NCBI GenBank assembly: GCA_030622265.1
Contig: JAUXGG010000033.1
Span: 1 to 10,192 of the forward strand
DNA: 10,192 nucleotides
DNA from: Candidatus Eiseniibacteriota bacterium
GTDB taxonomy: Bacteria > Arandabacterota > Arandabacteria > Arandabacterales > Arandabacteraceae
Direction: 5' to 3'
Within the stretch, counting starts at the first letter, position 1. Every line of letters starts with the position of its first letter. Shown here in pieces: positions 1 to 7,070 of this stretch. The notes under the pieces are model-generated. The model had not been told where the DNA came from. It saw only the letters and a program-made list of their open reading frames with translations, and searched no databases. The translations under genes and the position numbers were made by a program.

Positions 1-2285
1 AATCAGACGTCGTACTGGTGCGCGACTATTCTCACATGTGCTCCGAAGTGGGCCAGAAGATGGTGCTGGATGACATTGTAAACAACGGCCTGGACAGGGT
101 TGTGATAGCTGCGTGCTCGCCCCAGTTCCATGAAAAGACCTTCATGGGCACAGTCGAGAAGGCGGATCTCTCCCCCTATGTCATGGAGATAGCCAATATC
201 CGCGAGCAATGTGCGTGGCCGCATTTCGACCTTCCCAGCGTTGCCACGCAGAAGGCCAAGGATCTTGTCGGGATGGCCATAGGAAAAGCAAGGCTGGATG
301 AGGCTCTGGCCAAGAAGACCATGCCTATCGGCAAGAGAGTCCTGGTGATAGGAGGCGGGATAGCGGGTATTCAAGCATCCCTGGATCTTGGTGATGCCGG
401 ATTCAAGGTTATTCTGGTCGAGAAGGAGCCGACAATCGGCGGCAAGATGGCGCAGCTATCGAGGACGTTTCCCACCGAGGACTGTGCGGCATGCATCCTG
501 TCACCCAAGATGGCTGACGTTCCTTCCAATCCCAATATAGAGCTCCTCACCTTCACGGAGATAGAGGACATAACAGGCTACCTCGGCAACTATGAAGTCA
601 CCGTAGTGAGAAAGGCCACGTATGTTGACCTGGCGAAGTGTACTGCGTGTGACAAGTGCACAGAGGTTTGCCCCGTCACGGTGCCGAACGAGTATGAAGA
701 AGGACTCACGTCGAGAAAGGCGATATATCTTCCGTCTCCGATCGCCGTGCCCCACAGCTATATCCTGGATTCTCAGGCGTGTCTGGGGCTCTTTCCCCTG
801 GCTTGCGAGCGGTGCTACGAGGCCTGCGAGCCGGGCGCAATAGACTATGACCAGAAACCTGAGAGGCAGACCTTTACCGTTGATACGATAATAGTCGCTA
901 CGGGCTACGATGTGTTCGATGCGAGAGAGAAGAAGGTATACGGCATTGGACATTCCCCGAATGTAATAACTGCGTTGGATATGGAACGCATGATCGTCCA
1001 TGCCTCCGAGGGCCGGCCGATAAGGCCGATGGGAAAGAGGATTGCGTTCATCCAATGCGTCGGGTCCAGGGATGAGCAGGTGGGGAATGAGTATTGTTCA
1101 AGAATATGCTGTATGTATGCGACCAAGCTGTCGCAACTGCTGAAACGCTCCGATCCAACCAGGGATGTATATGTATTCTATACCGATCTCAGAGCCTACG
1201 GTAAGGGTTTCGAGGAATACTACAAGAGGGCACAGAATACGGGAGTGAAATTCGTGAGGGGGCGGGTGGCGGAGGTCAACGAGAATTCAAACAACCAGAA
1301 GGTTACACTCAAGGTTGAAGATACTCTCAGCCGCCAGATCATCGAGTCTGAGTTTGACCTGGTGGTTCTCTCAGTGGGCCTGTGTCCGAGCGAAGGCACC
1401 AAGAGAATCGCCGGGATACTGAAGTTGGGGGAAAGCCCGGATGGTTTCCTTCAGGAAGCTCATCCTAAGTTCAGGCCCGTTGATACCCTGAAGGACGGTG
1501 TATTCATTTGCGGGTGTGCGCAGGGCCCCAAAGACATACCGGACACAGTTGCTCAGGCAAGCGCGGCCTCCTCCAGGGCAACCAGGCTCATGAACAAGGG
1601 AGAGTATGACATAGCTCCAGTGATCGCGTTCGTCCATGAGGACCTGTGCGACGGCTGCGGCGAGTGCATCGAGCACTGCCCCATGGGTGCCTTGATACCT
1701 TCACAAATCGTGTCTGTGAACGAAGCGGTATGTAGTGGCTGCGGCAGCTGCATCGCATCCTGCCCCAAGGATGCCCTGGACCTGCACTGTTACACAACCG
1801 ATCAGCTCCTGGAACAGATAAAGGCCTCTCTTGCCAGCAAGGAAGATGGTGAAATCAGGATACTGGTCTTTGCAGACGATACCACCACATACAGGTTGGC
1901 CGACAATGTGGGTACGGGAAAACTCGCCTACTCTCCCGATACACGCATAATCCGCGTCCCGAGCGGCAGCAGGGTCACGCCGAAACTGATGCTGAAGGCA
2001 TTCGAAATGGGGGCAGACGGCATATTCATCGGTGAGAGTGAGGAGAAATCATCTCCGTATCCTCACAGTGTTGCCGCGATCAAAGACAATGTCGCTGCTG
2101 TAAGAGCCGCTTTGAAAGAACGGAACATAGAACCCGATAGAGTGCGCTATTTCGAGTTTGTGACGGTGATGTTGGGGGTATTCGTAAAGCAGATGAACAA
2201 CCACGCTGATTTCGCCAGAAGATCTGGCCCCATAAACAGAGAAGAGAGGGGCATGCTGGCAGGCCAGCTTGCTCACCAAGACTAG
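1..2285 (+). CDS. hdrA: HdrA-like flavin/iron-sulfur subunit (5' partial) with fused degenerate MvhD/FlpD-type domain
   Basis: Heterodisulfide reductase subunit A-like protein, the FAD subunit that performs electron bifurcation in HdrABC complexes of the cytosol. The reading frame is open to the left edge (codons in phase from base 3), and the residues before GTG 18 already match HdrA, so roughly 30 N-terminal residues lie outside the window. Counting from GTG 18: HdrA cluster motif DCAAC (155-159), FAD motif IGGGIAG (111-117), ferredoxin motif C208/C211/C214/C218, a further Cys set C255/C263/C266/C270, the HdrA signature FIQCVGSR (344-351) followed by YCSRICC, and a C-terminal 2x[4Fe-4S] ferredoxin domain (C544-C554 and C572-C582). 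Residues about 612-735 resemble MvhD/FlpD (RIIRV, KAFEMGADG, ERNIEPDRVR) but have no cysteine. It is the first visible gene of the redox operon; hdrC follows 11 bases after the TAG stop. The family call is firm. Bifurcation and the partner are inferred. Confidence 0.93.
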   Translation, partial: SDVVLVRDYSHMCSEVGQKMVLDDIVNNGLDRVVIAACSPQFHEKTFMGTVEKADLSPYVMEIANIREQCAWPHFDLPSVATQKAKDLVGMAIGKARLDEALAKKTMPIGKRVLVIGGGIAGIQASLDLGDAGFKVILVEKEPTIGGKMAQLSRTFPTEDCAACILSPKMADVPSNPNIELLTFTEIEDITGYLGNYEVTVVRKATYVDLAKCTACDKCTEVCPVTVPNEYEEGLTSRKAIYLPSPIAVPHSYILDSQACLGLFPLACERCYEACEPGAIDYDQKPERQTFTVDTIIVATGYDVFDAREKKVYGIGHSPNVITALDMERMIVHASEGRPIRPMGKRIAFIQCVGSRDEQVGNEYCSRICCMYATKLSQLLKRSDPTRDVYVFYTDLRAYGKGFEEYYKRAQNTGVKFVRGRVAEVNENSNNQKVTLKVEDTLSRQIIESEFDLVVLSVGLCPSEGTKRIAGILKLGESPDGFLQEAHPKFRPVDTLKDGVFICGCAQGPKDIPDTVAQASAASSRATRLMNKGEYDIAPVIAFVHEDLCDGCGECIEHCPMGALIPSQIVSVNEAVCSGCGSCIASCPKDALDLHCYTTDQLLEQIKASLASKEDGEIRILVFADDTTTYRLADNVGTGKLAYSPDTRIIRVPSGSRVTPKLMLKAFEMGADGIFIGESEEKSSPYPHSVAAIKDNVAAVRAALKERNIEPDRVRYFEFVTVMLGVFVKQMNNHADFARRSGPINREERGMLAGQLAHQD

Positions 2286-2296
2286 CGGGAGGCAAT

Positions 2297-2701
2297 ATGA
2301 CTAGCAGGCTCGTGATTTCCTCTGAAAACGAGGAGTTCCTGGCCAGGGTAAATGAACTGAGCGGCCAGGTGATAACCCTGTGTGACCAGTGTGGCATTTG
2401 TTCCGCAAGTTGTCCAATGATCGACGAGATGGATGTGACTCCGTCACAGATGATGAGAATGGTACAACTGGGACAGAGCGAGGTCCTCAAGACCAAGGCG
2501 ATGTGGCTCTGTGCATCATGTTTCACCTGCACCGTCAGGTGCCCCCGCGGCCTGGATCTGTCAAGGGTGGCCGAGGCATTGCGGCAGACTACATTGAGAC
2601 AGGCCTCAGATCACATCAACATTAACGCCATCCCCAGGGACGAGCTGGCCGCCCTTCCGCAGATCGCTCTGGTAGCAGGCATGAGAAAGTTCACCGGGTA
2701 G
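2297..2701 (+). CDS. hdrC: HdrC-like 2x[4Fe-4S] ferredoxin subunit
   Basis: Small iron-sulfur protein of 134 residues that relays electrons between HdrA and HdrB in the soluble Hdr complex. Two full CxxCxxCxxxCP motifs are visible, C29/C32/C35/C39 and C72/C75/C78/C82, spaced as in HdrC, with a helical stretch between them. There are no membrane segments, so this is the soluble type and not an HdrE or QmoC fusion. It is somewhat shorter than methanogen HdrC. The start at ATG 2297 is supported by GGGAGG at 2287-2292, four bases upstream. Its TAG stop is embedded in the Shine-Dalgarno site of hdrB (TAGGAGG, 2699-2705), which suggests translational coupling. The gene order hdrA-hdrC-hdrB is common in bacterial Hdr clusters. 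The Hdr family assignment relies on context, because dicluster ferredoxins are otherwise generic. Confidence 0.9.
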   Translation: MTSRLVISSENEEFLARVNELSGQVITLCDQCGICSASCPMIDEMDVTPSQMMRMVQLGQSEVLKTKAMWLCASCFTCTVRCPRGLDLSRVAEALRQTTLRQASDHININAIPRDELAALPQIALVAGMRKFTG

Positions 2702-2713
2702 GAGGACATCGGA

Positions 2714-3628
2714 ATGAATTCAAACAGCATGAGATTGCCGTATTACCCGGGATGTACCCTGAAGACGGCGGCGAGCGATTTCGAGATCTCTGCCCTGGCA
2801 TCCGCAGAGGCCCTGGGGATGGAGCTGCTTGAGCTTCCCAGGTGGAATTGCTGCGGCACGGTCTTTTCCCTGACCGACGATGACCTGATTCACCATGTTG
2901 CTCCCATAAGAAATCTCATCCGGGTTCAGGAGATGAACCGGGATGGTATCTTGGACAATGAGAACAGGCTGGTTACACTGTGCTCGATGTGTTTCAGCAC
3001 TCTGAAGCGGGCCGAACTTCTGGTGAGGGCAAACCCTGACAAGCTGAAGACGATCAACGACTTCATGTACCTTGAGGATGACTACAGCGGAGATGTCACG
3101 GTTGTCCATTTCCTGGAGCTGCTGAGAGATCTGGGACAAGAGGCAATATCTGAAAAGGTGAAGAGACCGCTCACTGGTCTCAAGGTCGCACCCTACTATG
3201 GGTGCATGATGCTCAGACCCAAAGAGGTGGGCATTGACGACCCCGAGCAACCTACGATCCAGAGCGACCTCTTCTCCGCTCTGGGTGCGGAAGTTGTCTA
3301 TAATCCTTACATGAAGTTATGCTGCGGCAGTTACCAGACCATGAATGAGAAAGACGCCGTGGTCCGCCTGGTGCACGATATCCTGAGCCATGCCCGTGCA
3401 GACGGAGCACATGTGGTGGCCACGTCATGTCCTCTATGTGCATTCAACCTCGACAAAAGGCAGAAGGAAGTTAAGCAAACATATCCCGATTTCGAAGAGA
3501 TCCCGGTTCTCTACTTCACTCAGCTTATGGCATTGGCATTCGATCTGGAGCCTGGATTCAGCGGATTTGATCAGAATTACGTGTCAGTTGAACCCTTATT
3601 CAAAGATATGCAGTTGATACCCGAGTAG
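2714..3628 (+). CDS. hdrB: HdrB-like subunit with two CCG domains (noncubane [4Fe-4S] sites)
   Basis: Heterodisulfide reductase subunit B-like protein of 304 residues. In methanogens HdrB carries two noncubane [4Fe-4S] clusters that cleave the CoM-S-S-CoB disulfide. Both cysteine-rich CCG domains are intact here: C14, C46-C47, C90 and C93 in the first half, and C164, C203-C204, C239 and C242 in the second. These match all ten HdrB cluster ligands. The N-terminus reads YYPGC and the second repeat YYGC, typical of HdrB over the related GlpC or LutA CCG proteins. The start at ATG 2714 has GGAGG at 2701-2705, eight bases upstream. It sits between hdrC and a FrdB-like gene, an arrangement that recalls methanogen TfrB, where a FrdB-like half and an HdrB-like half are one polypeptide. 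The natural disulfide substrate, if any, is unknown in a bacterium presumed to lack coenzymes M and B. Confidence 0.93.
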   Translation: MNSNSMRLPYYPGCTLKTAASDFEISALASAEALGMELLELPRWNCCGTVFSLTDDDLIHHVAPIRNLIRVQEMNRDGILDNENRLVTLCSMCFSTLKRAELLVRANPDKLKTINDFMYLEDDYSGDVTVVHFLELLRDLGQEAISEKVKRPLTGLKVAPYYGCMMLRPKEVGIDDPEQPTIQSDLFSALGAEVVYNPYMKLCCGSYQTMNEKDAVVRLVHDILSHARADGAHVVATSCPLCAFNLDKRQKEVKQTYPDFEEIPVLYFTQLMALAFDLEPGFSGFDQNYVSVEPLFKDMQLIPE

Positions 3629-3643
3629 AAGTGGGGGATTGCT

Positions 3644-4399
3644 ATGAAATCTGAAATGAGCATCATGGAGAGGATTGCCGAGGCAGCGAAGTCCGTGACC
3701 AAGGGTGTTGATACCGGTAGTGTCGAGCATTGGGTGACCATCTACGTAATGGGAAAAGGATATAGAGTTCCGGCGGACCTGACCATATTGACCGCCATGG
3801 AATATGCGGGTTACAGGTTCGTGAGAGGCGTCGGGTGTCGGCAGGGTTTCTGTGGCGCGTGTTCCACGGTTTACAGGAAAGAGGGCGACTATAAGCTTCA
3901 GACCGGCATGGCCTGTCAGACAAGAGTCGAGGATGGAATGTACCTGGTTCAAATACCCTTCGCCCCTGCTGAGAAGCCCGCCTATAACATCGCCGATGAG
4001 ACCTTCGATGCTGCGGTGTTCCTCAGGTTCTATCCCGAAGTTGCCAGGTGTGTATCGTGCAATACGTGTACCAAGTCATGTCCGCAGGACCTGGAGGTCA
4101 TGGACTATGTCCAGGCTGCGATCAAGGGTGATTTTGAATCCCTGGCAGAGGGTTCCTTTGATTGCATCCAGTGTGGTCTGTGCGCAATCAGGTGTCCGGC
4201 GGAGATCGTGCAATACAATGTGGCCCAATTGGGCAGGAGGATGTTCGGCCGTTATGGACATTCTGTACCCGAACACCTCTCTGGGCGGTTGGAGGAGATA
4301 CAGGCCGGTAAGTTCGACGAGGAGATGGACCAACTGACCAGGACTCCGACAGAGCAGCTGGAAGTTCTGTATGCGGGACGAGAGAGAGAGGCAGACTGA
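3644..4399 (+). CDS. FrdB/SdhB/TfrB-like iron-sulfur subunit, [2Fe-2S] plus two [4Fe-4S]
   Basis: Iron-sulfur subunit of the fumarate reductase/succinate dehydrogenase type, 251 residues, predicted to wire the flavoprotein encoded next to it to the Hdr proteins. The N-terminal ferredoxin fold carries a plant-type [2Fe-2S] motif C65-x4-C70-x2-C73 with a distant C91. Two CxxCxxCxxxCP motifs follow, C136/C139/C142/C146 and C174/C177/C180/C184. In quinone-linked FrdB/SdhB the last cluster is [3Fe-4S] because one Cys is replaced; here all four are present, so [4Fe-4S] is predicted, as in HdrC. The two motifs are also closer together than in FrdB. No SdhC/SdhD or FrdC/FrdD membrane anchor gene is nearby. 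The start at ATG 3644 has GGGGG at 3633-3637, six bases upstream, and lies 15 bases after the hdrB stop. It corresponds to the N-terminal half of methanogen TfrB. Confidence in the fold is high, and in the exact reaction moderate. Confidence 0.88.
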   Translation: MKSEMSIMERIAEAAKSVTKGVDTGSVEHWVTIYVMGKGYRVPADLTILTAMEYAGYRFVRGVGCRQGFCGACSTVYRKEGDYKLQTGMACQTRVEDGMYLVQIPFAPAEKPAYNIADETFDAAVFLRFYPEVARCVSCNTCTKSCPQDLEVMDYVQAAIKGDFESLAEGSFDCIQCGLCAIRCPAEIVQYNVAQLGRRMFGRYGHSVPEHLSGRLEEIQAGKFDEEMDQLTRTPTEQLEVLYAGREREAD

Positions 4400-4405
4400 C
4401 ACGCG

Positions 4406-4412
4406 GGAGGAG
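4406..4412 (+). promoter_or_regulatory. Ribosome binding site deciding the flavoprotein start
   Basis: GGAGGAG lies between the TGA stop of the FrdB-like gene (4397-4399) and two in-frame start codons. It touches ATG 4413 with no spacer, but sits at a normal distance from GTG 4419 (eight bases from GGAGG). The true start is therefore probably GTG 4419, with ATG 4413 the next choice. The upstream ATG 4371 lies inside the previous gene. Confidence 0.55.
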
Positions 4413-6071
4413 ATGGGTGTGATTGAATACATCGAAGGTTACCCCGAATACATGCGGGAGATGATATCCATTGTCCATAAGACAAGGGGAAAGAGAAAGG
4501 ACTACACCCCTCCCGCCATGAGCAAGAAAGAGCAGGACGAAGTACTTAAACTCCATCCGGATTATTCCCCCGGGGGCAAGAGGACCATATCCATCGGGAT
4601 GAATGCGGGCGATGTCGGTCCGGTCGAGGTAGTGGATCTGCTCGAAGCGCATCCTCTTCTGGAACAAGGAGAGGTCGACCTGTCCAACCCCGATTATACG
4701 CCGGACATCCTGGTGATAGGCGGCGGATTGGCCGGAACCTCCGCGGCCATCTGGGCCAATGAGAGCGGTATTGCCGCAGAGAATATTCTGCTCACCAATA
4801 AGCTCAGACACGGTGATGCCAATTCGATAATGGCCGAGGGTGGAACTCAGGCAGCCGACCGGCCCAATGACTCCTTGCAGAGCCACTACATAGACACCAT
4901 GGGAGGCGGGCACTTCAAGAACAAACCGGACGTAGTCAGGGCCCTGGTTGAAGATGCCCCTTCCATAATCCGCTGGCTTCTGGAATTGGGCACCATGATC
5001 GACCGGGAAGACAACGGAGATTTTGTCGAGAAATGGGGTGGCGGGACGTCCATACGGAGGTTGCATTCCTGCAGGGACTATACGGGTCTCGAAGAGCTCA
5101 GAGTCATAAGGGATGAGCTCAGGAGCCGGAGAATTCCGTGCATCGAACACTTCCCCGCAATCGAACTTCTCACAGACGGTGATGGCAGGGTCACAGGTGC
5201 GGTCCTGTGGAACCTCGAAACCGGTGAGTACAAGGTGGTGCAGGCGAAGGCCACCATTCTGGCCACGGGTGGGTTCGGGAGACTACACATACGTGGATTC
5301 CCGACCACCAATCACTATGGTGCGACCTGCGACGGCGTCGTGATGGCATATCACGCCGGTGCCAGGCTCAGGGATACCGATACGGTTCAATATCACCCCA
5401 CGGGAGCGGCATATCCTATTCAGATAATAGGTTACCTGCTGACTGAGAAGCTCAGGAGTTCGGGGGCTCAGCCGGTCAACAGGGATGGAGAAGCATTCGT
5501 GTTTCCACTTGAGCCAAGGGATGTCGAGGCTTCCGCATTGATAAGAGAGTGCTATGTGAGGGATAAGGGTATTACGACCCCGACGGGACTCAAAGGCGTG
5601 TGGCTTGATACCCCTCTCATAGAAATGCGGAACGGTGATGGCTACATTGATAAAGCATTCCCGGGCATGAGGAGGATGTTCAACCGGTTCGACATCGATA
5701 TGCGAAAGGACCCTGTTCTTGTCTTCCCAACCCTGCACTATCAGAACGGCGGCGTGGAGACAGACCCCCGGGGTAAGACCAACCTTGAAGGGCTCTGGGT
5801 AGCCGGCGAGGTATCCGGAGGAGTACATGGCCAGAACAGGCTCATGGGGAATTCGACGCTCGACTGCATGGTGTTTGGGAGAAGAGCCGGTATCTCCACC
5901 GCGGAATATGTAAAATCGGGCAAGGATGCGGGTGGGCTGACCCTGGAGCACACGAAACGGTACGCGAAGCTCCTCAAAGAGGCCGGGATAGAAACGGATC
6001 GGAGAGCTCCCATAATTCTACCGGAGTACAGAGGTAAGGCGGCATTGGCGCGAATGATCGACGTGCTCTGA
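4413..6071 (+). CDS. FrdA/SdhA/TfrA-like FAD flavoprotein
   Basis: Flavoprotein of the fumarate reductase/succinate dehydrogenase family, probably interconverting fumarate and succinate in the cytosol. Counting from the farthest upstream ATG (4371, 566 residues): an unusual N-terminal extension (about 1-110), FAD motif GGGLAG (117-122), AEGG (155-158), substrate-site residues H342 in HPTG, E359, the proton-transfer-type R383 in EPRDV, H456 in HYQNGG, and R490 in VHGQNRL. These match the catalytic set of FrdA/SdhA. The His that binds FAD covalently in quinone-linked enzymes aligns with N151, so FAD is probably noncovalent. The C-terminal helical domain is much shortened, with only about 75 residues after NRL. 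ATG 4371 overlaps the upstream gene by 29 bases and has no good ribosome site. ATG 4413 or GTG 4419 is preferred; GGAGGAG at 4406-4412 fits GTG 4419 best. A related unsaturated-acid reductase remains possible. Confidence 0.9.
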   Translation: MGVIEYIEGYPEYMREMISIVHKTRGKRKDYTPPAMSKKEQDEVLKLHPDYSPGGKRTISIGMNAGDVGPVEVVDLLEAHPLLEQGEVDLSNPDYTPDILVIGGGLAGTSAAIWANESGIAAENILLTNKLRHGDANSIMAEGGTQAADRPNDSLQSHYIDTMGGGHFKNKPDVVRALVEDAPSIIRWLLELGTMIDREDNGDFVEKWGGGTSIRRLHSCRDYTGLEELRVIRDELRSRRIPCIEHFPAIELLTDGDGRVTGAVLWNLETGEYKVVQAKATILATGGFGRLHIRGFPTTNHYGATCDGVVMAYHAGARLRDTDTVQYHPTGAAYPIQIIGYLLTEKLRSSGAQPVNRDGEAFVFPLEPRDVEASALIRECYVRDKGITTPTGLKGVWLDTPLIEMRNGDGYIDKAFPGMRRMFNRFDIDMRKDPVLVFPTLHYQNGGVETDPRGKTNLEGLWVAGEVSGGVHGQNRLMGNSTLDCMVFGRRAGISTAEYVKSGKDAGGLTLEHTKRYAKLLKEAGIETDRRAPIILPEYRGKAALARMIDVL

Positions 6072-6098: not shown

Positions 6099-7070
6099 AT
6101 GTCCGATGATGTGAGCGCGATAGCATTTGGTCCTGTACCATCGAGGCGCCTGGGCCGCAGCCTGGGAGTCAGCACCATACCGGCGAAGACCTGCAGCTAT
6201 GCCTGTGTTTACTGCCAACTCGGAAAGACCGTGAACATGCGGGCTGAGCGAAAGGCATTCCATGATGCTGTTGCGATCTTCGAGGAAGTAGAACGCAAGA
6301 TCAAGGAAGCCGGGGACAGATCGGAACCGGTAGACTTCCTGACCTTCGTTTCCGACGGCGAACCCACATTGGATGTCAATCTCGATAGACAGATAGAAGG
6401 CCTTAAGCCGCTCGGGTTCAAGATCGCGGTTGTCTCAAATGCCTCGCTCATATGGCAGGCCGAAGTCCGGGATGCTCTCGAGAAGGCAGACTGGGTGTCA
6501 CTGAAGATTGACGCCGTGAGCGAGAGTATCTGGCGGAGGATCAACCGGCCCCACAAATCTCTGGAGTTAGACCGGATTCTTGAGGGTATCTCCAGGTTCT
6601 CGTCGACCCACAGGGGAGAGTGGACGACGGAGACCATGCTTGTCCAGGGCGTCAATGATGCCGCCTCCGAGATACACAAGGTGGCCGAGTTCATTTCAAG
6701 CTTGAAGCCTACGAAGAGCTATCTGTCCATTCCGACCAGACCCCCTGCGATGAAGTGGGTGAAGCCTCCTGAAGAAGAGGTAATAAACAAGGCCTATCAG
6801 ATTTTCCGTGAGAAGTCCCTTGAAGTGGAGTACCTCATTGGCTATGAAGGAAATGCCTTCGCGTCCACAGGTGATGTCGAGAGCGACCTTCTGAGCATCA
6901 CGTCAGTGCATCCGATGAGAGAGGATGCCGTTGATGAACTCCTATCAGGGGCGGGCGCCGGCTGGTCACTGATTGACAGGCTCATCGCCGATGGGAAGCT
7001 GGTGAAGGTGGAGTATGATGATACCGGCTTCTTTGTGCGCCGATTCCCGGCCGCAGGCGGGAGGAAGTGA
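6099..7070 (+). CDS. Radical SAM protein, COG0731 type
   Basis: Radical SAM enzyme of 323 residues. The cluster motif is C32-x3-C36-x2-C39, embedded in a CVYCQLG context, and the N-terminus has the GPVPSRRLGRSLGV signature of the COG0731 family, the group that also contains the archaeal wyosine enzyme TYW1. The GEPTLD motif (about residues 88-93) fits the SAM amino-group contact region, and VSNASL fits the next barrel strand. Residues after about 250 look like a small winged-helix-like tail. No extra Cys-rich auxiliary cluster motif is seen. The start at ATG 6099 has GAGG at 6087-6090, eight bases upstream. It lies 27 bases after the flavoprotein stop and is probably the last gene of the operon. 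A link to the Hdr/Frd complex is not shown by the sequence, and the substrate is unknown. Bacterial members of this family are largely uncharacterised, so only the superfamily call is secure. Confidence 0.88.
   Translation: MSDDVSAIAFGPVPSRRLGRSLGVSTIPAKTCSYACVYCQLGKTVNMRAERKAFHDAVAIFEEVERKIKEAGDRSEPVDFLTFVSDGEPTLDVNLDRQIEGLKPLGFKIAVVSNASLIWQAEVRDALEKADWVSLKIDAVSESIWRRINRPHKSLELDRILEGISRFSSTHRGEWTTETMLVQGVNDAASEIHKVAEFISSLKPTKSYLSIPTRPPAMKWVKPPEEEVINKAYQIFREKSLEVEYLIGYEGNAFASTGDVESDLLSITSVHPMREDAVDELLSGAGAGWSLIDRLIADGKLVKVEYDDTGFFVRRFPAAGGRK

What the first reader, a model, noticed from the sequence alone, without database searches (positions are those of the whole stretch)
1..6071. Complete HdrABC joined to a split TfrAB-like fumarate reductase: candidate soluble bifurcating or confurcating complex
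Seen: five contiguous same-strand genes with gaps of 11-19 bases, encoding HdrA, HdrC, HdrB, a FrdB-like protein and a FrdA-like flavoprotein. Known: methanogen TfrB is a fusion of a FrdB-like and an HdrB-like half and works with TfrA, and HdrA bifurcates electrons with ferredoxin. Inferred: here the TfrB halves are separate genes and HdrA/HdrC are added, so the favourable or unfavourable fumarate/succinate couple could be linked to low-potential ferredoxin. I do not know of a characterised bacterial enzyme with exactly this set.
Basis: partly seen in the sequence, partly recalled or inferred. Interest (0 to 1): 0.72.

Follow-up and report, generated by a model that had tools for sequence, protein, structure and literature searches.

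The report
Hdr-linked soluble fumarate reductase cluster
The stretch encodes a cytoplasmic fumarate reductase next to a heterodisulfide-reductase core that probably couples fumarate and succinate chemistry to low-potential electrons; close relatives of this arrangement have been described as a hypothesis, but this copy has lost the usual electron inlet.

Summary
Five same-strand genes are real: hdrA (fused to an MvhD-like domain), hdrC, hdrB, frdB, frdA. HdrA is not complete: the contig starts about 31 residues into it. Electron-input modules swap (NADH-type Flx, [NiFe]-hydrogenase, or neither), often beside TCA-branch genes. FrdA catalytic residues and HdrA bifurcation residues are kept. New here: all five cluster cysteines of the MvhD domain, the usual electron inlet, are replaced in the window; of 107 fused relatives none keeps all five and 71 keep none, while 60 of 66 stand-alone MvhDs keep all. 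In a sister genus the cluster follows a Mrp/complex-I-like operon. The core idea is already in print as a hypothesis (PMC6315080, PMC7282089, PMC8542988); I saw no biochemical proof. Observation mostly right, interpretation partly supported, new variant of a known kind. Against it: 2 of 5 HdrA*-HdrC-HdrB units with readable downstream DNA lack adjacent frdBA.

The parts
3..2285 (+). hdrA*: HdrA fused to an MvhD-like domain, 760 aa, 5' end cut off by the contig start (about 31 residues missing)
   Evidence: model matches solved methanogen HdrA chains at 42-52% identity; C164, E328, K375 correspond to C197, E356, K409 of M. thermolithotrophicus HdrA
1860..2201 (+). MvhD/FlpD-like domain of hdrA* (residues 620-733) without any cysteine, so without the [2Fe-2S] ligands of MvhD
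   Evidence: PF02662 E 1.1e-23; cysteine columns read D,T,S,S,S; no Cys in residues 616-745; modelled with block-mean pLDDT 77-96
2297..2701 (+). hdrC, 134 aa, two CxxCxxCxxxCP [4Fe-4S] motifs
2714..3628 (+). hdrB, 304 aa, two complete CCG motifs (non-cubane [4Fe-4S] sites)
3644..4399 (+). frdB, 251 aa: one [2Fe-2S] motif and two four-cysteine [4Fe-4S] motifs (no [3Fe-4S]-type motif)
4413..6071 (+). frdA, 552 aa: fumarate reductase/succinate dehydrogenase-type flavoprotein with an N-terminal extension of about 95 residues and no PF02910 C-terminal domain

Best explanation
A soluble HdrA*CB-FrdBA complex that interconverts fumarate and succinate and exchanges those electrons with the Hdr core. 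Inferred path: FrdA FAD - FrdB [2Fe-2S] and two [4Fe-4S] - HdrB/HdrC - HdrA FAD - ferredoxin domains of HdrA. Fumarate would be the high-potential acceptor in place of heterodisulfide, and its reduction would help drive ferredoxin reduction (bifurcation); the reverse, succinate oxidation drawing on low-potential electrons, is possible. Shown: gene order, conservation of the link, cofactor and active-site residues, loss of the MvhD cluster ligands. Inferred: complex formation, the path, bifurcation and direction. The mid-potential donor is unknown: H2 or NADH through MvhD is unlikely because that cluster site is gone; F420H2 is unlikely because no F420 ligase gene was found in seven genomes of the lineage; NAD(P)H through the Nuo/GltD-like proteins encoded upstream in the sister genus is the best lead. 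Rough weights: Hdr and Frd functionally coupled 0.7; true bifurcation or confurcation 0.5; net fumarate reduction 0.6.
For: Conserved synteny in two samples (50 of 61; 19 of 26) against 0 of 20 HdrA near control flavoproteins. Swappable input modules (Flx-type, MvhGA) around the same FrdBA point to FrdBA as an output of the Hdr core. Neighbours from the C4 branch of the TCA cycle: sucCD, fumarases, 2-oxoacid:acceptor oxidoreductase. FrdA H328, T344, E345, R348, R369, H442 and R476 invariant in 30 sequences. HdrA bifurcation residues present (role of E356 and K409 from passages of PMC12054007). HdrB keeps both CCG sites in 46 of 46. FrdB has two four-cysteine motifs in 71 of 71. FrdB distances follow HdrB (r 0.74) more than HdrA (0.51) in 31 thinned sets (weak evidence).
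Against: No biochemistry. HdrA*-HdrC-HdrB units without frdBA directly beside them exist in G006 and G346, 2 of the 5 genomes where downstream DNA can be read. 11 of 61 and 7 of 26 FrdA loci have no Hdr gene in reach, so FrdBA can stand without a linked Hdr. In Riftia symbionts tfrAB did not share the expression pattern of the Hdr-Flx cluster (passage of PMC11636981). HdrA* has no MvhD cluster, so the third partner that bifurcation needs is not identified. The upstream gene in the window's own genus is unknown.
Confidence: 0.55

Rival explanations
1. Tfr-like: HdrB and HdrC pass electrons from a cellular dithiol (or a DsrC- or lipoyl-type protein) to FrdBA, as in methanogen thiol:fumarate reductase. 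HdrA* runs the separate disulfide-reducing side with ferredoxin, so the two halves meet only through the thiol pool.
For: HdrB keeps both CCG sites. HdrB and HdrC without HdrA in reach occur in 8 of 61 loci. The best NCBIfam flavoprotein model for FrdA is TfrA, though far below its cut-off. DsrC is present in G001 and G004.
Against: HdrA is in reach in 42 of 61 and 18 of 26 loci. No DsrC was found in G000 or in the 96%-complete G002. TfrA and TfrB cut-offs are not met.
Confidence: 0.2
2. Two independent enzymes, HdrA*CB and FrdBA, that are only co-transcribed because both serve the same redox pool.
For: HdrA*CB without adjacent frdBA in G006 and G346; FrdBA without Hdr in 11 of 61 loci; HdrA covaries least with FrdA (partial r 0.01).
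Against: The linkage holds across several bacterial and archaeal phyla with reshuffled gene order, which a chance operon would hardly keep.
Confidence: 0.15
3. Peripheral E-type quinol:fumarate reductase (SdhABE/MfrABE-like), with the HdrB-like protein as the SdhE membrane-facing subunit.
For: HdrB scores almost as well with MFR_anch_SdhE (141.5 bits) as with HdrB (150.0 bits). HdrB-like genes sit near 3 of 20 control flavoproteins.
Against: Cut-offs of MFR SdhE (500) and MFR SdhA (1100) are missed by far. HdrA and HdrC are in the operon. FrdB has no [3Fe-4S]-type motif.
Confidence: 0.05
4. FrdA acts on another 2-enoate or on aspartate rather than on fumarate.
For: L-aspartate oxidases share the fold and align over the active-site region.
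Against: sucCD, fumarase and 2-oxoacid:acceptor oxidoreductase neighbours in relatives. G000 already has a separate L-aspartate oxidase over the NadB cut-off.
Confidence: 0.05

Closest known systems
Flx-Hdr-fumarate reductase 'succinate operon' of Pseudoclostridium thermosuccinogenes (PMC7282089, passages read; the 2019 preprint by Koendjbiharie and van Kranenburg seen only as a reference entry)
   Same: FrdAB linked to HdrABC and proposed to couple fumarate reduction to ferredoxin. Gut Clostridia loci found here have a like order, hdrBCA-mvhD-flxCBA-frdBA, in L054 after fumC.
   Different: The window has no Flx genes, HdrA is fused to a cysteine-free MvhD domain, and FrdA is only 50-54% identical to the Clostridia loci. 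I had no sequence of P. thermosuccinogenes itself.
flxABCD-hdrABC interspersed with korABCD and tfrAB in Thioflavicoccus and tubeworm symbionts (PMC6315080, PMC11636981, passages read)
   Same: Proposed direct electron delivery from Hdr to thiol:fumarate reductase and 2-oxoglutarate:ferredoxin oxidoreductase.
   Different: NADH-type input through Flx and an rTCA gene cluster; I had no sequence of theirs to compare.
Tfr-OGOR-Mvh-Hdr cluster of Cloacimonadota (PMC8542988, passages read)
   Same: Hdr beside a fumarate reductase with rTCA genes.
   Different: Hydrogenase-linked; the window has no hydrogenase genes.
Thiol:fumarate reductase TfrAB of methanogens (Heim 1998, seen as a reference entry; details recalled)
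   Same: FrdA/FrdB-type catalytic part joined to a CCG-type thiol/disulfide part.
   Different: There FrdB and HdrB are one chain and there is no HdrA; here they are separate and both family cut-offs are missed.
HdrA2B2C2 of Methanosarcina acetivorans (PMC5296606, passages read)
   Same: HdrA-MvhD fusion with HdrB and HdrC; best NCBIfam match of the window HdrA.
   Different: HdrA2 is reported with one Fe2S2 cluster in its MvhD domain and uses F420H2; here the cluster ligands are absent and no F420 ligase was found in seven genomes of the lineage.

Membership tests
Electron-bifurcating HdrABC | HdrA residues C197, E356, K409 and the ferredoxin-domain cysteines | tested here: met
   C164, E328, K375 in the window HdrA; invariant in the 33 sequences of alignment A2, window included
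Electron-bifurcating HdrABC | HdrB with two CCG motifs; HdrC with two [4Fe-4S] motifs | tested here: met
Electron-bifurcating HdrABC | electron inlet MvhD with its [2Fe-2S] cysteines | tested here: not met
   D,T,S,S,S in place of five cysteines; no Cys in the domain
Electron-bifurcating HdrABC | measured coupled ferredoxin reduction | not testable with these tools
   needs protein
HdrA2 (NF040770) | score over 1100 bits | tested here: not met
   870.5 bits for the cut-off window protein; 930.7 bits for the full-length G002 protein
Thiol:fumarate reductase TfrAB | TfrA (NF004900) cut-off 718 and TfrB (NF004898) cut-off 385 | tested here: not met
   299.8 bits for FrdA; 34.7 bits for FrdB and 26.6 bits for HdrB
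Thiol:fumarate reductase TfrAB | FrdB and HdrB halves in one polypeptide | tested here: not met
   separate genes 2714-3628 and 3644-4399
Fumarate reductase/succinate dehydrogenase flavoproteins | dicarboxylate site residues (E. coli FrdA His232, Thr244, Glu245, Arg287, His355, Arg390; numbers and roles recalled) | tested here: met
   H328, T344, E345, R369, H442, R476 invariant in 30 sequences; aligned to solved SdhA and aspartate oxidase
Membrane complex II (SDH/FRD) | cytochrome b / membrane anchor genes | tested here: not met
   no such protein among the window genes scanned; PF01127 in 0 of 7 genomes G000-G006, found in G007
Membrane complex II (SDH/FRD) | PF02910 C-terminal domain in the flavoprotein | tested here: not met
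   in G000 PF02910 was found only in its L-aspartate oxidase
E-type SdhABE / 8-methylmenaquinol:fumarate reductase | SdhE (NF042965) cut-off 500 and SdhA (NF042982) cut-off 1100 | tested here: not met
   141.5 and 184.4 bits
Flx-Hdr-Frd complex | FlxABCD genes linked to the cluster | tested here: inconclusive
   none in the window or in the 28 kb of G002 around its cluster (loci L124, L125), but DNA upstream of hdrA in the window's genus is not available

The most novel reading that the evidence does not exclude
An Hdr bifurcating core whose dedicated electron inlet has been closed by loss of all five MvhD cluster cysteines while the domain stays folded, used as a soluble fumarate-reducing machine. 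In the sister genus it is part of one operon with a Mrp/complex-I-like ion pump and a NuoI-GltD NAD(P)H protein, so that fumarate reduction, ferredoxin and a sodium or proton gradient would be coupled in one assembly without hydrogenase, Flx or F420.
Probability: 0.15. Interest if true: 0.75.

Novelty: new variant of a known kind. Interest (0 to 1): 0.5.

Why it matters
If FrdBA really is an outlet of HdrABC, the fumarate/succinate step, which is usually tied to quinones, becomes a source or sink of ferredoxin electrons in anaerobes. That would change energy budgets of succinate fermentation and of the reductive TCA cycle in many uncultured phyla and some archaea. The family is common (44 of 386 sampled genomes), so one purification would settle a question for a wide group. 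The cysteine-free MvhD domain makes a sharp test of where electrons enter HdrA.

Tried and rejected
Rejected: chance operon or assembly accident (same order in G001 and G002). Not adopted: the sister-genus Nuo operon as part of the window system. Its two marker genes have no close orthologue in G000 or G001 (NuoI-GltD-type matches there are at most 41% identical, no NuoD match in G000, a 36% one in G001), and NuoD is beside 0 of 26 further FrdA loci. It stays a lead. Rejected: F420H2 as donor (F420_cofE in 0 of 7 genomes; the control rings in 3 of 14). Considered: HdrA* as half of a HdrA/HdrA* heterodimer. A second HdrA lies near it in L015, L168 and L169, but HdrA* keeps all its own parts, so this was not adopted. 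Led nowhere: the radical SAM gene 6099-7070 follows frdA by 27 bases in the window and is also there in G001, but not in G002. The PDB second looks list fumarate reductases and HdrA; they barely cover FrdA residues 1-77 and the fused MvhD domain, so no statement on the folds of those parts follows.

Literature: paper search for six ready names of such a complex returned nothing in the library. Searches gave the prior art cited here. One search (MvhD, cysteine, HdrA, fumarate reductase, Mrp, fused; at least five of them) listed five papers, of which I have passages of PMC5296606 and PMC2702500 only. Subscription papers and preprints were not searchable. Recalled only: the five-subunit soluble NADH-dependent fumarate reductase of Hydrogenobacter thermophilus, possibly the nearest characterised enzyme; one search gave me no text on it. 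The names Flx and Mrp for gene groups are recalled; Pfam shows the Flx-type set of L051 as an NAD-binding oxidoreductase plus two 4Fe-4S proteins.

Limits of the counts: the 80 loci are the best of 141 found with peptide patterns of this very FrdA, and many are gut Clostridia. The 33 loci come from 33 of the 44 genomes. Of the other 11, seven are G000-G006; four were fetched before: G346 has a full Hdr set, G008 has FrdB and MvhD near a contig end, and G012 and G042 have FrdBA only. Two control contigs are short (7-8 kb). The tree is a quick one with long branches; its labels depend on flank length, and one outgroup row is labelled Mvh. The mirror-tree correlations are over non-independent pairs.
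Full report
What is there. The window is bases 1-10192 of contig C369 of a 2.29 Mb, 431-contig, 74% complete genome. The same-genus genome G001 matches a record titled Candidatus Eisenbacteria bacterium CSMAG_463: locus L053 is 99% identical to the window over the last 267 FrdA residues, and G001 contig C379 has the same length as that record, 4137. Five + strand genes follow each other with gaps of 11, 12, 15 and 13 bases: hdrA, hdrC, hdrB, frdB, frdA. HdrA is cut by the contig start, so 'complete HdrABC' is not quite right. frdA starts at 4413, not at the upstream ATG that the ORF list prefers.

Subunits. HdrA matches solved methanogen HdrA structures and keeps residues tied to bifurcation and dimer cluster binding (C197, E356, K409 in M. 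thermolithotrophicus numbering; window residues 164, 328, 375; roles of E356 and K409 from passages of PMC12054007, of C197 from PMC9012536). It carries a C-terminal MvhD/FlpD-like domain. In MvhD this domain holds a [2Fe-2S] cluster that passes electrons into HdrA (passages of PMC9012536 and PMC12054007; the HdrA2 fusion, PMC5296606). In the window the five cysteine positions read D,T,S,S,S and the domain has no cysteine. I checked 107 fused relatives of at least 740 residues out of the 120 listed: none keeps all five cysteines, 71 keep none, 3 keep one and 33 keep two; the 22 used among the 25 nearest all read D,T,S,S,S. Of 66 stand-alone MvhD reading frames near FrdA loci 60 keep all five, 3 have one substitution and 3 are gapped. 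A fused HdrA of G002 that passes the HdrA2 cut-off keeps the cysteines, so fusion alone does not cost the cluster.

Is the linkage conserved? Of 80 loci found by FrdA similarity, 74 have at least 700 bases upstream and frdB is directly upstream in 73. 61 have at least 3 kb upstream, and 50 of these carry Hdr genes on the same strand: 33 all three, 8 HdrB and HdrC, 8 HdrA only, 1 HdrA and HdrC; 11 none, one of which (L055) has Flx and MvhD up to its contig end. Around 20 control flavoproteins of the SdhA/FrdA/NadB superfamily, 33-37% identical to FrdA, HdrA, HdrC and MvhD were found in none and an HdrB-like gene in 3. The FrdA family is in 44 of 386 sampled genomes.

Modules. The genes between Hdr and FrdBA change. 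Flx-type genes are in gut Clostridia, Aminicenantes and a Phycisphaerae genome. MvhGA is in Heimdall- and Thorarchaeota, BRC1, Omnitrophota and others. 2-oxoacid:acceptor oxidoreductase (Aminicenantes L013, over cut-off), sucCD (WOR-3 L014) and fumarase (L054; Chloroflexota L087) flank others. Stahlbacteria and several WOR-3 genomes have FrdBA with no Hdr in reach. On a quick tree of 93 FrdAs seven context labels need 24 changes where 6 is the least possible, so modules were swapped repeatedly, though less often than in shuffles (mean 40.9). The window's FrdA falls in a nine-row group with Bacteroidota, WOR-3, Aminicenantes, Cloacimonadota and Phycisphaerae sequences, which suggests transfer between phyla.

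The window's variant. In the same family, G002 has the same five genes directly after a Mrp-antiporter and complex-I-like operon (MnhB, MnhC, MnhD, NuoL, NuoH, NuoB, NuoC, NuoD types) and a NuoI-GltD fusion, 54 bases before hdrA. G005 shows the same up to a contig end inside hdrA. G000 and G001 have no close orthologue of NuoD or NuoI-GltD, but both are incomplete and both contigs break inside hdrA, so the upstream gene in the window's genus is unknown. A domain like the window's fused one (E up to 1e-15) was found in 6 of 386 genomes. frdBA follows HdrA*CB in G000, G001 and G002, but not in G006 or G346; in G113 the contig ends. In G346 HdrA*CB is divergent from a second cluster hdrC-hdrB-hdrA-mvhD-frdB-frdA. 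The lineage also has a second cluster hdrC-hdrB-hdrA-frdB-frdA with no MvhD hit next to it (G002, G003, G004).

Physiology. PF01127 membrane anchors were found in none of G000-G006 and in G007. In G000, G002 and G005 the only PF02910 match is an L-aspartate oxidase over the NadB cut-off; G001, G003 and G004 have an additional strong PF02910 match, so classical-type flavoproteins exist in the lineage, one of them in the window's own genus. F420 ligase was found in 0 of 7 genomes. DsrC was found in G001 and G004 only.

Mechanism. I take the complex to be a soluble fumarate reductase whose electrons pass through HdrBC and the HdrA flavin. Fumarate is a plausible high-potential acceptor for the branch that heterodisulfide fills in methanogens (potentials: heterodisulfide -145 mV, H2 -420 mV, ferredoxin -500 mV, passages of PMC9012536; fumarate about +30 mV, recalled). 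Distance matrices over 31 sets tie FrdB to HdrB (0.74) and HdrC (0.66) more than to HdrA (0.51), which favours FrdB docking at HdrBC over docking at the empty MvhD port; this is weak evidence. Direction, donor and coupling stay open.

Prior art. PMC6315080 hints that interspersed korABCD, tfrAB and flxABCD-hdrABC products form a complex delivering electrons directly. PMC7282089 describes the Flx-Hdr-fumarate reductase operon of P. thermosuccinogenes, a transcript rise of about 4-fold at low CO2 (not significant for all subunits), and the assumption that fumarate reduction is linked to ferredoxin. PMC8542988 describes a Tfr-OGOR-Mvh-Hdr cluster in Cloacimonadota. PMC11636981 supports the operon by expression, with tfrAB as the exception. 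PMC9723716 describes an archaeal cluster with SdhA and HdrA2B2C2. For all papers I saw search listings and the passages returned by term searches, never the whole text. I saw no report of the cysteine-free MvhD domain or of the Mrp/Nuo linkage in those passages, which is not proof of absence.

Verdict.

Noticed in passing
window:6099-7070: Radical SAM protein 27 bases after frdA, also there in same-genus G001 (95% identical) but not in G002; its best NCBIfam match, the viperin family, is far below cut-off.
   Followed up: partly
window:7221-9431: Large probably secreted zinc carboxypeptidase (M14) with an InhA-like MAM domain and a T9SS-type C-terminal sorting signal just below cut-off.
   Followed up: no
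window:9807-10190: Start of another ORF that runs off the contig end; not identified.
   Followed up: no
L151 and L152 (G002:C171, G005:C364); also G000:C7: HdrA genes with one in-frame TGA at the position equivalent to HdrA Cys197 (DCSI-TGA-IL in L151 and L152), most likely selenocysteine.
   Followed up: partly
G000 and relatives, e.g. C234, C7, C297: This lineage has many HdrA-like segments (29 matches to the HdrA2 model in G000, 53 in G001), including 1000-residue two-domain forms beside MvhD and iron-sulfur proteins.
   Followed up: no
L169 (G346:C6:2000-21000): Two divergent Hdr clusters back to back: hdrC-hdrB-hdrA-mvhD-frdB-frdA and the fusion hdrA*-hdrC-hdrB.
   Followed up: partly
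L042 and L083 (Heimdallarchaeum, Thorarchaeota): Asgard archaea carry hdrA-mvhD-mvhG-mvhA-hdrC-hdrB-frdB-frdA, a candidate hydrogen-driven version (MvhG and MvhA were checked by profile in L042 only).
   Followed up: partly
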